From contig JALOLS010000007.1 in the NCBI GenBank assembly GCA_025455865.1, positions 1 through 40,820 of the forward strand: DNA of 40,820 bases, read 5' to 3'. Below the pieces are notes generated by a model that did not search any database, was not told the DNA's origin, and worked only from the letters and a program-made list of their open reading frames with translations. Positions 3,970 to 35,700 of this stretch are shown in pieces; position 1 is the stretch's first letter, and each line of letters starts with the position of its first letter. The DNA is from Thermoleophilia bacterium. GTDB taxonomy: Bacteria; Actinomycetota; Thermoleophilia; Miltoncostaeales; Miltoncostaeaceae. A program made the translations under genes and the position numbers.

Positions 3970-4689
3970 TCAGGTCCGGCGCCCCCAGATGACCAGGCCG
4001 CCCCCGAGGGAGAGCCGCCGGGCGCGCAGGTCGGCGAGGCCGGCGTCGGCGTACAGGCCGATCAGCCTCCCCGGGGGCCAGCGGTGGTGGAACGCCGGGA
4101 TGCTCCGGTGCAGGAAGCGCCCGGTGCGCGCCCAGGCCGGGCCGCCGGCGAGGAGGCCGAGCGCGGGCAGGCCGGCCGCGGTGTAGGCGCGCCAGGCGAG
4201 CCGGGCCGGCGGCCACGGGGGGACCCCGAACTCGAGGCTGGCGAGGGTGCCGCCCGGCCGCAGGACCCGCACCAGCTCGGCCATGGTGGCCTCGGGATCC
4301 TCGACGTAGCGCAGCAGGTAGCTCACCGTCACGCCGTCGAAGGCCGCGTCGGGGAACGGCAGGCGCTCCGCCTCCCCCTGCACCAGCACGATGCGCCCCT
4401 CCATGCCCTCCGCCCGGACCCGCGCGCGGCCGGCGGCCAGCATCTCCGGGCTCTGGTCCAGGCCCGTCACCCGGCAGGCCCGGCGGCGCACCAGCATCCG
4501 CGCGATGGCGGCCGTGCCGGTCGCGACGTCGAGCACGTGGTCGCCCGCCCCCACCGGGAGGCGGTCGGCGGTGAAGCGCTTCCAGCGGGGCTCCTGGCCC
4601 AGGGACAGGAACGTCGCCCGCGCCTCGTACCCGCGGGCCAGGCCGGCGAAGAGGCGCCGCGCCTGCCGCTTGTGCCCCGGGAGGGTCAG
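3970..4689 (-). CDS. UbiE/MenG-like SAM-dependent methyltransferase
   Basis: A class I methyltransferase of about 239 aa. The SAM-binding motif I is [11 protein letters not shown] (about residue 53), followed by an acidic residue after strand 2 ([11 protein letters not shown]), the post-motif [19 protein letters not shown] and [14 protein letters not shown]. The N-terminal [19 protein letters not shown] matches the part that precedes motif I in UbiE/MenG enzymes, which methylate demethylmenaquinone; an actinobacterium would use this for menaquinone, but substrate is inferred. No ATG, GTG or TTG lies ahead of that conserved N-terminus. The only plausible start is CTG at 4689, which overlaps the TGA of the thioredoxin gene as CTGA. 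Starting at the first internal GTG would remove the conserved helix. Translation is therefore probably coupled to the upstream gene. Confidence 0.85.
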
Positions 4690-5423
4690 TAGAGGGCGCG
4701 CGCGAGCTGCTTGCGGAAGCGCAGCGTGAGGGGATGCTGGTCGCCCAGCCGGCGGAAGATGCCGATCATGGCCGCGCGGAGCTGGTCCTTGAGCGTGCGG
4801 TCCGCCCGGCCGATCGCGTCGAGCAGGTGGGTCAGCGCGGCCTCCTCGTCGCCCCGGGCGAGGGCGGCGAGGCCGGCCTGCACGTCGGGGTCGTCGGACG
4901 CCGCGAGGCGCACCCGGGCCAGCAGCCCGGCCGCGTCGGGGTCGTGGGCGACCGGCTCGAGCACCTCGAGCGCCTCGTCGGACCGCCCGTCGTCGACGAG
5001 CAGCCGCCCGAGCGCGACCCGCGCGCCGGTGTGGCCGGGCTCGCGGCGGACCGCCTCCCGCAGGGACTCCTCGTCGCCCTCGGCCACCAGCTTGTCGGCC
5101 TGGGAGGGGACGATGCGGTTGAGGAACGCCTCGAGCATCGGCGGGGGCACCATCCCCACGAACTCGTCGACCACCGCGCCGTGCCGGAACGCCTTGACCG
5201 CCGGGATGCTCATCACCCGGTAGGCCTGGGCCAGCCGGGGGTTCGCGTCGATGTCGACCTTGGCCAGCACGACGTCGGGCTCCCGGGCGGCGACGGCCGA
5301 CTCGATGAGCGGCCCGAGCTGCCGGCAGGGCCCGCACCACTCGGCCCAGAAGTCGACCACCACGGGCACCTCGCGCGAGCGCTCCAGCACCTCGGCCTCG
5401 AATGTCGCCTCGGTCACGTCCAT
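4686..5423 (-). CDS. ybbN: YbbN/CnoX-type thioredoxin with TPR-like C-terminus
   Basis: A 245-aa protein with an N-terminal thioredoxin domain (about residues 1-105) carrying the redox motif WCGPC (Cys30 and Cys33) and the cis-proline segment SIPAVKAF. The C-terminal half (about 110-245) is helical with TPR-like stretches such as [22 protein letters not shown] and the end block [18 protein letters not shown]. This architecture is that of YbbN (CnoX), a co-chaperone that forms mixed disulfides with unfolded proteins and hands them to DnaK or GroEL; unlike E. coli YbbN the CxxC pair is complete here, so oxidoreductase activity is possible. ATG at 5423 follows a strong AAGGAG; it is preferred over in-frame codons further up. 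It is the first gene of a minus-strand operon and its stop overlaps the start of the methyltransferase. Confidence 0.9.
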
Positions 5424-32300: not shown

Positions 32301-33995
32301 GTGAAGGCCTCTCGGGTCATCGCGATCCTGGTCGCCGTGGCCCTGGTCGCGGGTGGGCTCATCTGGCGCTTCGCCGGCTCCGGCGACAGCGGCGGTGGTG
32401 GCGGTGGTGGCACGGTCACCGAGGCGCCCGAGGGCGCCGTCGAGGTCCCCTTCGTCTACTCGCCCGAGAAGCGCCCGCTGCTCGAGCCGCTCCTGGCCGA
32501 GTACAACGCGGCCGGGCGCGAGGTGGGCGGGCGGCCGGTGTTCGTGCGCGGCGAGGTCGTCTCCTCGGGGGACTCCGCGGACAAGATCGACCGCGGCGTG
32601 CTCCGCCCGGTGCTCTGGAGCCCGGCGTCGTCGTTGTGGGGGCGCCTGCTGAACTACCGCGCCGACCAGCCGCTGGTGGCCGACGAGAACCCCTCGCTCG
32701 TGCGGACCCCGCTGGTCATCGCCATGTGGGAGCCGCTCGCCCGGGCGCTCGGGTGGCCGGCCAAGCCGCTGGGATGGAAGGACATCCTGCGCGAGGCCCG
32801 CAGCGAGGAGGGCTGGGCGGCCTACGGGCATCCGGAGTGGGGCCGGTTCAAGTTCGGCCACACCAACCCGGACTTCTCGACCTCGGGGCTCTCGGCCGTG
32901 GCGGCCGAGTACCTGTCGGCCGCGGGCAAGACCGAGGGCCTCACGCTGGCCGACGTGCGCGACCCCGCCGTGCGCACGGAGGTCCGCGACATCCAGCGCT
33001 CGGTCGTCCACTACGGCGACACCACCCTGTTCTTCGCCGAGCGGATGAAGGAGCAGGGCCCCTCCTACGTGAGCGCGGTGGCCATGGAGGAGGTCACCGT
33101 CCTGGACTTCAACCGCGCCCCGGACCGGCGGGTCCCGCGGCTGGCGGCGATCTACCCCAAGGAGGGCACGTTCTTCAGCGACAACCCGCTGATCGTGCTG
33201 AACGGGGACTGGGTCACGCCGGAGCAGAAGGCGGCGGCCCAGGACCTGATCGCGTTCCTGCAGGAGAAGGTGACGCCCCAGAGGGCGGCCGAGCTCTCGT
33301 TCCGGCCCTCCGACCCCGACGCCCGCCCGCTGCCCCCGGTGACCACCGCCAACCTGGTCGACCCGGCCAAGCCGACCCGGCTGCTCAGCCTGCCCGAGCC
33401 CCGCGTGCTGAACGCGATCACCGGGGCGTGGCGGCAGGACCGCAAGCCCGCCTACGTGCAGGTGGTGCTGGACATCTCGGGCTCGATGAACGACGAGGGC
33501 AAGCTCGAGGGGGCCAAGCAGGGCCTGGAGAGGTTCCTGGACCTCATGCAGCCCCAGGACCTGGTGGGCCTCACGGTGTTCAGCGACCGGGTGACCGTGC
33601 TCGCGCCCCCGCGGCCCATCCGGACCGACCGCGCCGTGCTCAAGGGGCGCATCCGCAACCTCATCGCCGACGGCGGCACGGCGGTCTACGACGCCACGCT
33701 GGCCGCCCAGCAGGGGGTCGCCCGCGGCGCCCGCCCCGACCGCATCAGCGCGGTGGTGGTGCTGACCGACGGCGCCGACAACCAGAGCCGCGCGGGGATC
33801 GACCAGGTGCTGCGCGAGCTCAGGCGGCGCTCGGGCAGCGAGGGCGACGGCGTGCGCGTGTTCACCATCGCCTACGGCTCCGACGCGGAGCGGGAGAAGC
33901 TCCAGGAGATCGCCCGCGCCGGCGGCGGCGCCGCCTACAGCGGCGACCCGGCCACGATCGAGCGGGTCTACACGCAGATCGCGTCGTTCTTCTGA
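32301..33995 (+). CDS. Membrane-anchored substrate-binding and VWA domain protein
   Basis: A 564-aa protein. Residues 5-24 (RVIAILVAVALVAGGLIWRF) form an uncleaved anchor or signal; there is no lipobox Cys. A Gly-rich linker follows, then a periplasmic-binding-protein-like region (about 45-370) and a C-terminal von Willebrand A domain. The metal-ion-dependent adhesion site is complete: D391-x-S393-x-S395 in LDISGSMND, Thr460 in DGGTAVYD and Asp490 in LTDGADNQ. The domain pair is known from actinobacteria (solute-binding plus VWA proteins) but has no defined job; no ABC permease is nearby, so it is unlikely to be a simple transporter component. VWA domains usually mediate metal-dependent protein contact. 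GTG start is supported by the -10 element. The two following genes are joined to it by CTGA overlaps. Confidence 0.88.
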   Translation: MKASRVIAILVAVALVAGGLIWRFAGSGDSGGGGGGGTVTEAPEGAVEVPFVYSPEKRPLLEPLLAEYNAAGREVGGRPVFVRGEVVSSGDSADKIDRGVLRPVLWSPASSLWGRLLNYRADQPLVADENPSLVRTPLVIAMWEPLARALGWPAKPLGWKDILREARSEEGWAAYGHPEWGRFKFGHTNPDFSTSGLSAVAAEYLSAAGKTEGLTLADVRDPAVRTEVRDIQRSVVHYGDTTLFFAERMKEQGPSYVSAVAMEEVTVLDFNRAPDRRVPRLAAIYPKEGTFFSDNPLIVLNGDWVTPEQKAAAQDLIAFLQEKVTPQRAAELSFRPSDPDARPLPPVTTANLVDPAKPTRLLSLPEPRVLNAITGAWRQDRKPAYVQVVLDISGSMNDEGKLEGAKQGLERFLDLMQPQDLVGLTVFSDRVTVLAPPRPIRTDRAVLKGRIRNLIADGGTAVYDATLAAQQGVARGARPDRISAVVVLTDGADNQSRAGIDQVLRELRRRSGSEGDGVRVFTIAYGSDAEREKLQEIARAGGGAAYSGDPATIERVYTQIASFF

Positions 33996-34771
33996 GCCGC
34001 GACGACCTCATCCGCGACCTCGCGCTGCGCGCGCTCTTCCGCCCGGCCAACCTGCTCCCGCCGGCCGCGGTCCTCGCGGTGGGCCTCGCCACCGGCCTCT
34101 GGCCCCTCTACATCGCCGCCGCGGTGCTCTACGGGGTGCTCGCCGGGACCACGTTCTTCAACGTGGACGAGGGCCGCAAGGTGATCGCCGCGCGCCGCGG
34201 CACCGGCGAGGCCGAGGCGCCCGCCCCCGCCCCGGTGCTCCTGACCGACCCGCTCGTGCGGGCCCGCTACGCCGAGGCCCGCGACGAGGAGGCGCGCATC
34301 CGCGCCGCGCTCCAGAAGAGCCCCATCCCGCTCCCCGAGGTCGAGGTGGAGATGGCGGGGCTCATGGACGACGTGCGCCACCTGTGCGAGCAGGCCGAGG
34401 TCGTCACCGGCTACCTGCGCACGGTCGACCGGGAGCGGCTCGCGGCCCGGCTCGCCGCGGTCGAGCGCGACCGGGCCGCCGCCGGGCCGGACCTCGAGGC
34501 GACCCTGGCCGAGACGGCCACCGCGCTCGCCCAGCAGATCCAGACCGTGGACGAGATGGAGGATCACACCAGCCGGTTCCACGCGCGGATGACCCAGCTG
34601 GTGAGCACGATGGGGGCCATCCGCGCCCAGGTCGTGCGCCTGCAGGTGCAGGGCCAGCCGGACGCCTCCGAGCGGGTGCGGGGCCAGCTCGCCGGCGCCC
34701 GTGAGCTGCTGGCCGGCATCAACGCCGGCATGGACGAGGTCGCCGAGCGCGCCCAGGAGACGCCGGGCTGA
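33992..34771 (+). CDS. Two-helix membrane protein with coiled-coil tail
   Basis: About 259 aa. After a short basic N-terminus (RDDLIRDLALRALFRPANLL) come two adjacent membrane helices (PPAAVLAVGLATGLWPLYIAAAVLYGVLAG). The remaining two thirds is a long cytoplasmic, charged helical region with heptad-like patterns, for example VRHLCEQAEVVTGYLRTVDRERLAARL and TLAETATALAQQIQTVDEME, ending in ELLAGINAGMDEVAERAQ. I do not recognise a family. No ATG, GTG or TTG lies in frame before the first membrane helix; the first GTG would start inside it. CTG at 33992 overlaps the TGA of the VWA gene (CTGA) and is the likely start. Position in the operon suggests it is the membrane partner of the VWA protein. 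Confidence 0.72.
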   Translation: MSRDDLIRDLALRALFRPANLLPPAAVLAVGLATGLWPLYIAAAVLYGVLAGTTFFNVDEGRKVIAARRGTGEAEAPAPAPVLLTDPLVRARYAEARDEEARIRAALQKSPIPLPEVEVEMAGLMDDVRHLCEQAEVVTGYLRTVDRERLAARLAAVERDRAAAGPDLEATLAETATALAQQIQTVDEMEDHTSRFHARMTQLVSTMGAIRAQVVRLQVQGQPDASERVRGQLAGARELLAGINAGMDEVAERAQETPG

Positions 34772-35700
34772 GCGCCGGGCGCCTGTTCGACGCGTACCTG
34801 TTCGTCGACTGGAGCGCGAGGAACCGGCCGTCGCCGGCCACGCCGAAGCCCGACACGATCTGGGTGGGCGAGCGGTGCGGCGAGGATGGGGACGAGAAGT
34901 ACTGCCGGACCCGCCATGAGGCCACCGAGCACGTGCGCGCCCGCCTGCGCCACCACGTCACGGGCGGGCGGCGGGTGCTGGTGGGCTTCGACTTCCCCTA
35001 CGGCTACCCGGCGGGGCTGGCCGCCCGGCTCGGCCTGAGCGGGGCCCCGTGGCGCGCGGTGTGGGACACCCTGGCCGACGTGGTGCAGGACACCCCCGAG
35101 AACGTGAGCAACCGCTTCGCCGCCGCGGGCGGGCTCAACCGGCGCATCGGGCCCGGTCCCGGGCCGTTCTGGGGTTGCCCGGCGAGCCGGCGACACGACG
35201 GGCTGACCTCGACGGCGAAGGGGCTCATCGCGTTCCCGTTCTGCGACCTGGCGAAGCTGCGGCGCACCGAGGCGGCGATCGCCGGCGTGCAGGAGACCTG
35301 GAAGCTCTCGGGCGCGGGCAGCGTGGGGAGCCAGGCGCTGACCGGGATCCCCCGGGTGCGCGCCCTGCGCGACGACCCGCAGCTCGCCGCCGTGAGCCGC
35401 GTCTGGCCGTTCGAGACCGGCTTCACCGCCCGGCCGGTGCCGGACCGCGGCCCGTTCGTGCTGCACGCCGAGATCTGGCCGGGCATCGTGCCCGCGGCGG
35501 AGGTCGGGCACGAGACCGCGACGACCGGGGCGATCAAGGACCAGGCCCAGGTGCGTCTGATGTGCCGCTGGGCCGCCCGGCACGATGCGGATGGCGCCCT
35601 CGGGGCCTTCCTCGCCGACCCGGGCCTCGCCCCGCCGGACCGGGCCAGGGTGGACCAGGAGGAGGGCTGGATCCTCGGGGTGGCGCTCCCGGCCCCCTGA
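34768..35700 (+). CDS. RNase-H-fold-like protein (homologues labelled molybdopterin guanine dinucleotide synthesis)
   Basis: About 310 aa. The N-terminus YLFVDWSARNRPSPATPKPD is an Asp-bearing first strand, followed by YCRTRHEATEHV, RRVLVGFDFPYGYPAGL, TPENVSNRFAAAGGLNRRI, GPFWGCPASR, ETWKLSGAGSVGSQALTGIP, VWPFETGF, VLHAEIWPG and AIKDQAQVRLM. I recognise these from proteobacterial proteins that carry an automatic label 'molybdopterin guanine dinucleotide synthesis'; the label has little behind it, and the Asp/Glu pattern (VDWS, GFDFP, HAEIWP, KDQAQ) fits a DUF429/RNase-H-like nuclease fold. Known starts fail: the first GTG (34864) removes the first strand. CTG at 34768 overlaps the preceding TGA, and an in-frame stop at 34702 bounds the choice. 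Third gene of the VWA operon. Confidence 0.78.
   Translation: MSAGRLFDAYLFVDWSARNRPSPATPKPDTIWVGERCGEDGDEKYCRTRHEATEHVRARLRHHVTGGRRVLVGFDFPYGYPAGLAARLGLSGAPWRAVWDTLADVVQDTPENVSNRFAAAGGLNRRIGPGPGPFWGCPASRRHDGLTSTAKGLIAFPFCDLAKLRRTEAAIAGVQETWKLSGAGSVGSQALTGIPRVRALRDDPQLAAVSRVWPFETGFTARPVPDRGPFVLHAEIWPGIVPAAEVGHETATTGAIKDQAQVRLMCRWAARHDADGALGAFLADPGLAPPDRARVDQEEGWILGVALPAP

What the first reader, a model, noticed from the sequence alone, without database searches (positions are those of the whole stretch)
33992..34770. Three genes whose only plausible start is CTG inside a CTGA stop-start overlap
Seen: the methyltransferase (4689), the coiled-coil membrane protein (33992) and the RNase-H-like protein (34768) have no ATG, GTG or TTG in frame before their conserved or structurally needed N-termini. 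Each has CTG placed exactly so that its TG and the next A form the stop of the upstream gene. For the third gene an in-frame stop at 34702 limits the options and the first GTG (34864) cuts off the Asp-bearing first strand. Other overlaps in this window use ATGA or GTGA in the same place. Inference: termination-reinitiation allows CTG as a start in this organism. Automated annotation would truncate all three proteins.
Basis: partly seen in the sequence, partly recalled or inferred. Interest (0 to 1): 0.6.

Follow-up and report, generated by a model that had tools for sequence, protein, structure and literature searches.

The report
CTG used as a bacterial start codon
In this very GC-rich bacterium (class Thermoleophilia) several genes, including the three in this window, appear to begin with CTG instead of the usual ATG, GTG or TTG, often exactly where the previous gene stops, so standard gene finders would cut off the front of these proteins.

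Summary
All three genes have CTG in a CTGA stop/start overlap and no ATG, GTG or TTG near where coding begins. A gene finder that ignores start codons puts the onset exactly at 4689 and 33992, and three codons before 34768. Orthologues of the 33992 gene have ATG or GTG at that position. In the 34768 gene the internal GTG would remove an invariant Asp-Trp-Ser and the first strand of an RNase-H-like fold. Across 1.56 Mb from three genomes of the family, CTG is the most enriched of 58 non-canonical codons at the onset of genes lacking a usual start, ranking first in each genome. A YchF-like GTPase has CTG in five genomes where ten close orthologues have ATG, GTG or TTG in the same column. ispE has CTG in four genomes, one a single-contig assembly, so assembly error is not the cause. 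CTG is a known but very rare bacterial start; unusual here is its use in roughly 1-2% of genes and 10-15% of four-base overlaps. No protein data exist.

The parts
4687..4689 (-). CTG start codon of the UbiE-like methyltransferase, inside CTGA
   Evidence: start-blind onset exactly here; orthologues in G004 and G025 also have CTGA at the end of the upstream gene and no canonical start
3970..4689 (-). UbiE/MenG-like methyltransferase gene, 239 aa
   Evidence: Pfam PF01209 1e-35, TIGR01934 9e-41 but below its cut-off
4686..5423 (-). upstream gene: thioredoxin-TPR (CnoX-like) protein, stop TGA 4688-4686
   Evidence: Pfam Thioredoxin 8e-24, TPR_20 2e-16
32301..33995 (+). upstream gene: substrate-binding-like plus VWA-domain protein, stop TGA 33993-33995
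   Evidence: Pfam VWA 2e-17
33992..33994 (+). CTG start codon of the coiled-coil membrane protein, inside CTGA
   Evidence: start-blind onset exactly here; orthologues have ATG (G015, G025) or GTG (G006) in the same column and GTG one codon earlier (G013)
33992..34771 (+). membrane-anchored coiled-coil protein, 259 aa, no named family
34755..34759 (+). AGGAG Shine-Dalgarno, 8 nt before the CTG at 34768
   Evidence: read in sequence; anti-SD duplex -7.4 kcal/mol
34768..34770 (+). CTG start codon of the RNase-H-like protein, inside CTGA
   Evidence: in-frame stop at 34702, no other NTG before it; orthologue starts ATG-P-LFDAYLFVDWSS against window CTG-SAGR-LFDAYLFVDWSA
34768..35700 (+). RNase-H-fold-like protein, 310 aa; relative of the C-terminal half of PRK14495 (NF011066)
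   Evidence: D14 W15 S16 invariant in 21 homologues; model pLDDT 92, first strand residues 9-14; best structural neighbours are RNase-H-like folds at middling Z

Best explanation
CTG is a genuine, minor start codon in this Thermoleophilia family, and all three window genes begin with it. Inferred mechanism: a ribosome finishing the upstream gene at TGA stays on the mRNA and restarts at the overlapping or adjacent CTG; where coupling is absent, a strong Shine-Dalgarno can do the same. In overlaps the first base of the start codon is also the third base of the upstream gene's last codon, so in a 73-76% GC genome it drifts towards G or C; as the machinery tolerates CTG, GTGA can turn into CTGA. 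Shown: position, conservation of the protein from the CTG on, exchange of CTG with ATG/GTG/TTG among orthologues, genome-wide enrichment of CTG. Inferred: initiation with methionine, reinitiation, and GC drift as the cause.
For: Start-blind onsets at the CTGs. Gene 2 orthologues with ATG/GTG in the same column. Gene 1: CTGA without canonical start also in G004 and G025. Gene 3: invariant DWS and first strand lost from any canonical start. Unbiased scan of 58 codons: CTG first, 38/105 startless against 89/626 normal genes, p=3.4e-7; CTC, also Leu, only 22/105 against 86/626; rank 1 in each of three genomes, rank 9 in an alphaproteobacterial control. CTGA frame test pooled p from 0.001 to 0.00002 over six sets of criteria. 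YchF-like GTPase: CTG in five genomes; ATG in 4, GTG in 5 and TTG in 1 close orthologues; in G024 an in-frame stop 11 codons upstream. ispE: same NTG position, CTG in G000, G004, G011, G019 and GTG, ATG or TTG in six others, with GGAGG 7 nt upstream in G000, G011, G019 and G025. EamA transporter CTG against GTG/ATG/TTG. 7 of 38 CTG candidates have a Shine-Dalgarno against 4% background per internal CTG.
Against: No peptide or ribosome-profiling data. In E. coli CUG works at 0.86% of AUG, and it is 0.024% of annotated bacterial starts (PMC11497404), so yield should be low unless coupling or an altered ribosome helps. The initiator tRNA has the normal GGG/CCC stem and infC looks normal, so no special factor was found. 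16S rRNA could not be inspected. Coding onset is located only to a few codons, and some of the 38 candidates are chance. Over all genes CTG near the onset shows no Shine-Dalgarno excess. In G025 alone the CTGA frame test shows no excess.
Confidence: 0.87

Rival explanations
1. The real starts are the first downstream canonical codons (34864 for gene 3, +29 codons for gene 2, +45 for gene 1), and the stretch before them is untranslated.
For: These are the downstream starts that a caller limited to ATG/GTG/TTG can reach.
Against: The stretches score as coding (gain 16 to 27 log units), align with orthologues up to their ATG/GTG, and in gene 3 hold invariant residues and the first strand.
Confidence: 0.04
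2. The pairs are made as fusion proteins by -1 frameshifting or stop readthrough at the overlap rather than by initiation at CTG.
For: Frames overlap in -1 register, and in one MAG (G019) the Trx frame runs into the methyltransferase frame.
Against: No obvious slippery heptamer at the three sites by eye; orthologues of genes 1 and 2 have their own ATG/GTG, some clear of the upstream gene; the G019 case looks like a local deletion in the upstream gene; ispE and YchF exchange CTG with other NTG codons.
Confidence: 0.05
3. Assembly or sequencing errors removed the true start codons.
For: The window is from a 186-contig assembly.
Against: CTG recurs at homologous starts in independent genomes, one of them a single contig (G011), and in five genomes for YchF.
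Confidence: 0.02

Closest known systems
CTG (CUG) as a rare alternative bacterial start codon (listed in NCBI table 11)
   Same: Same codon, presumably read by the normal initiator tRNA.
   Different: Literature: 0.024% of annotated bacterial starts and 0.86% of AUG efficiency in E. coli (PMC11497404); switches of ancestral AUG, GUG or UUG to CUG were 4 in about 69,000 starts of related genomes (PMC5622118). Here roughly 1-2% of genes, with repeated switching inside one family.
Four-base NTGA overlaps with translational coupling by termination-reinitiation (PMC6728339, PMC10666635, PMC12548453)
   Same: Same geometry; the downstream start shares two bases with the TGA stop.
   Different: The surveys name ATGA and GTGA for this overlap; CTGA does not occur in the text searched.
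Ribo-RET mapping in Mycobacterium tuberculosis (PMC9094748)
   Same: Another GC-rich actinobacterium.
   Different: There ATG, GTG and TTG are enriched at initiation sites but CTG is not, so CTG use is not a general trait of the phylum.

Membership tests
CTG start codon | No canonical start near the onset of coding | tested here: met
CTG start codon | Orthologues have ATG/GTG/TTG in the same alignment column | tested here: met
   Gene 2: ATG/GTG; YchF, EamA, ispE elsewhere in the genome. Gene 3: orthologue starts two residues before the same LFDAY, so near but not the same column. Gene 1: two orthologues keep CTGA, others have a nearby GTG.
CTG start codon | CTG, and not other codons, is over-represented at such onsets | tested here: met
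CTG start codon | Protein begins with methionine encoded by CTG | not testable with these tools
   needs N-terminal proteomics
NTGA translationally coupled gene pair | Four-base overlap of stop and start | tested here: met
NTGA translationally coupled gene pair | Downstream translation depends on upstream translation | not testable with these tools
   needs reporters; gene 3 also has its own Shine-Dalgarno, genes 1 and 2 have none
RNase-H-like fold (gene 3) | Strand 1 ending in a conserved acidic residue, as in RuvC | tested here: inconclusive
   first strand residues 9-14 with invariant D14; best matches are Tex, RuvC, terminase nuclease, YeaZ but at Z about 7 or less and no Foldseek hit below 1e-3

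The most novel reading that the evidence does not exclude
In this Thermoleophilia family CTG has become a regular fourth start codon, used for some 1-2% of genes including conserved ones (ispE, a YchF-like GTPase, dnaE2), both in stop/start overlaps and behind Shine-Dalgarno sequences, because initiation is permissive for a first-position C or because coupled reinitiation relaxes start-codon checking; GC pressure on the wobble base of the upstream gene feeds it.
Probability: 0.6. Interest if true: 0.65.

Novelty: new variant of a known kind. Interest (0 to 1): 0.55.

Why it matters
Gene finders limited to ATG, GTG and TTG would miss or truncate such genes, some of them conserved housekeeping genes, across a large uncultured group, and published start-codon frequencies inherit that bias. 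The exchange of CTG, GTG, ATG and TTG between close orthologues also gives a natural experiment on how strictly ribosomes check the first base of the start codon, and whether coupling to an upstream stop relaxes that check.

Tried and rejected
1) Altered initiator tRNA (the M1-type C30-G40 change known to loosen CUG discrimination): own tRNA-fMet has the normal GGG/CCC stem. 2) Unusual infC: start is TTG or GTG, protein normal. 3) 16S G1338/A1339: a conserved 16S pattern found nothing in any of 31 genomes, probably withheld or masked, so not testable. 4) A general Shine-Dalgarno excess at CTG near onsets over all genes: none; it appears only in startless genes. 5) For ispE the CTGA itself first looked like the start; orthologues show that the start is the NTG three codons earlier, so the CTGA count contains at least one such case. 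6) G019 methyltransferase orthologue left out because its upstream gene is frameshifted. 7) Mannosyltransferase (L202): homologues did not inform the N-terminus; RNase J (L148): not searched. 8) Caulobacter dnaA as a CUG precedent: the paper shows that this CUG is not used in vivo.

Full report
What was checked. CTGA at a gene end is common in this genome (211 of about 500 gene ends), since most genes end in TGA and third codon positions are mostly C or G. The junction alone therefore means little; the question is whether the downstream genes lack any other start.

Start-blind evidence in the window. I trained a codon-frequency gene finder on the genome itself and let it place the beginning of each gene from coding signal alone. 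It put the methyltransferase at 4689, the coiled-coil protein at 33992 and the RNase-H-like protein at 34759, while nearly every other window gene had an ATG, GTG or TTG within a few codons of its onset. The next canonical start downstream is 45, 29 and 32 codons away, and the stretches skipped score as strongly coding. Upstream canonical codons are either absent (gene 3, in-frame stop at 34702) or about 200 codons away inside the previous gene.

Orthologues of the three genes. The window is contig 145 of a 3.16-Mb assembly. Its family contains a genome whose contig matches in length and content Thermoleophilia bacterium HKST-UBA59, and its class one matching a Gaiellales bacterium. For gene 2, window CTG-SRDDLIRDL aligns with ATG-GRDEAIGRL, ATG-SRRADIRDL, GTG-RRDEAIGRL and GTG-A-SRDAQIREL, so the CTG sits in the start column. 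For gene 1, G004 and G025 have the same CTGA at the end of the same upstream gene and no canonical start before the conserved LF(A/R)GL; G013, G011 and G005 have a GTG slightly further on. For gene 3 the closest orthologue begins ATG-P-LFDAYLFVDWSS against CTG-SAGR-LFDAYLFVDWSA; residues D14, W15 and S16 are invariant in 21 homologues from several phyla. A confident model (pLDDT 92) has its first strand at residues 9-14, and the nearest solved structures are RNase-H-like proteins such as RuvC and Tex, with middling scores. The GTG at 34864 is residue 33, so a protein starting there would lack these parts.

Genome-wide test. In 761 kb of this genome and 400 kb each of two relatives, I compared pairs in which CTGA lies in the frame of the downstream gene with control pairs (other frames, or TAG/TAA stops). 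Onset at the junction without a canonical start occurred in 12/66 against 8/187 in the own genome (p=0.0009; 0.01 without the window genes), and 19/120 against 18/360 pooled (p=0.0003); other criteria gave pooled p between 0.00002 and 0.001. G025 alone shows no excess in this test. In the own genome the same filter passes 50 of 118 ATGA/GTGA/TTGA pairs, so CTG makes up about 10-15% of four-base overlaps after subtracting the control rate. A second test made no assumption about which codon is used: among 58 non-canonical sense codons, CTG is the most enriched within three codons of the onset of genes without a usual start (38/105 against 89/626, p=3.4e-7; the synonymous CTC 22/105 against 86/626). 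It is first in each of the three genomes separately and ninth in a small, redundant set of alphaproteobacterial loci used as control. The excess is about 20 of 1371 genes, i.e. 1-2%.

Independent genes. A YchF-like GTPase starts CTG-QLGLVGLANAG in this genome and CTG in four genomes of another genus of the family (G009, G018, G021, G024), while ten close orthologues have ATG (4), GTG (5) or TTG (1) in that very column; G024 has an in-frame stop 11 codons upstream. Its CTG follows a TGA by one base. ispE, behind rsmA, has an NTG three codons before the rsmA stop; the codon is CTG in this genome, G004, G011 and G019, GTG in G025, G006 and G013, ATG in G015 and G018, TTG in G008, with GGAGG seven bases upstream in this genome, G011, G019 and G025. 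An EamA transporter has CTG where orthologues have GTG, ATG or TTG. dnaE2 has CTG behind GGAGG. Two CTGA genes begin signal-peptide-like sequences at the CTG. G011 is a single-contig genome, so draft-assembly errors do not explain the pattern.

Mechanism. Two of the three window genes have no Shine-Dalgarno before the CTG, and gene 3 has AGGAG eight bases upstream. Reinitiation by the ribosome that has just terminated is the natural explanation for the first two and for the YchF-like gene; Shine-Dalgarno-led initiation fits ispE and dnaE2. In overlaps the first base of the start codon is the wobble base of the upstream gene, which GC pressure drives to G or C; this would explain why GTGA is the commonest form here and CTGA appears beside it (inference). 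I found no special initiator tRNA or IF3, and 16S rRNA could not be examined.

Place in the literature. CUG is 0.024% of annotated bacterial starts and 0.86% as efficient as AUG in E. coli (PMC11497404). Evolutionary switches to CUG were almost absent in 36 genome groups (PMC5622118). Overlap surveys list ATGA and GTGA (PMC10666635). M. tuberculosis ribosome profiling shows no CTG enrichment (PMC9094748). The codon is known; its frequency, its exchange with other NTG codons in conserved genes, and its place in overlaps in this family are what is new. Only protein-level data can close the case.

Noticed in passing
L154:3537-3836 (-), G000:C91: YchF-like GTPase with CTG start conserved in five genomes of two genera, and ATG/GTG/TTG in the same column elsewhere; context TGA-N-CTG.
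   Followed up: yes
L196:4528 (+), G000:C43: ispE begins with CTG 7 nt after GGAGG, overlapping the end of rsmA by 13 nt; four genomes have CTG here.
   Followed up: yes
L126:9400 (-), G000:C3: Error-prone DNA polymerase dnaE2-like gene with CTG start behind GGAGG; orthologues use ATG/GTG nearby.
   Followed up: partly
L210:15603 (+), G025: Fur-like regulator whose coding onset falls on CTG (CTG-RRTPQREAIL) with no canonical start nearby.
   Followed up: no
L371, G048 ispE: No ATG/GTG/TTG before IV-GTGA-NAPAKLN in the codons shown; a GGAGG lies 10 nt before ATC, a possible ATC start.
   Followed up: no
L017, G019:C40: Upstream thioredoxin-TPR gene carries a frame-changing deletion relative to orthologues so that its frame runs into the methyltransferase frame; assembly error or real fusion.
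   Followed up: partly
window 34768-35700: Family without a Pfam model, matching only the C-terminal half of PRK14495 (MobB fusion); RNase-H-like model with invariant DWS, VWPFE and EEG motifs; patchy in the class but common among Caulobacter and Phenylobacterium.
   Followed up: partly
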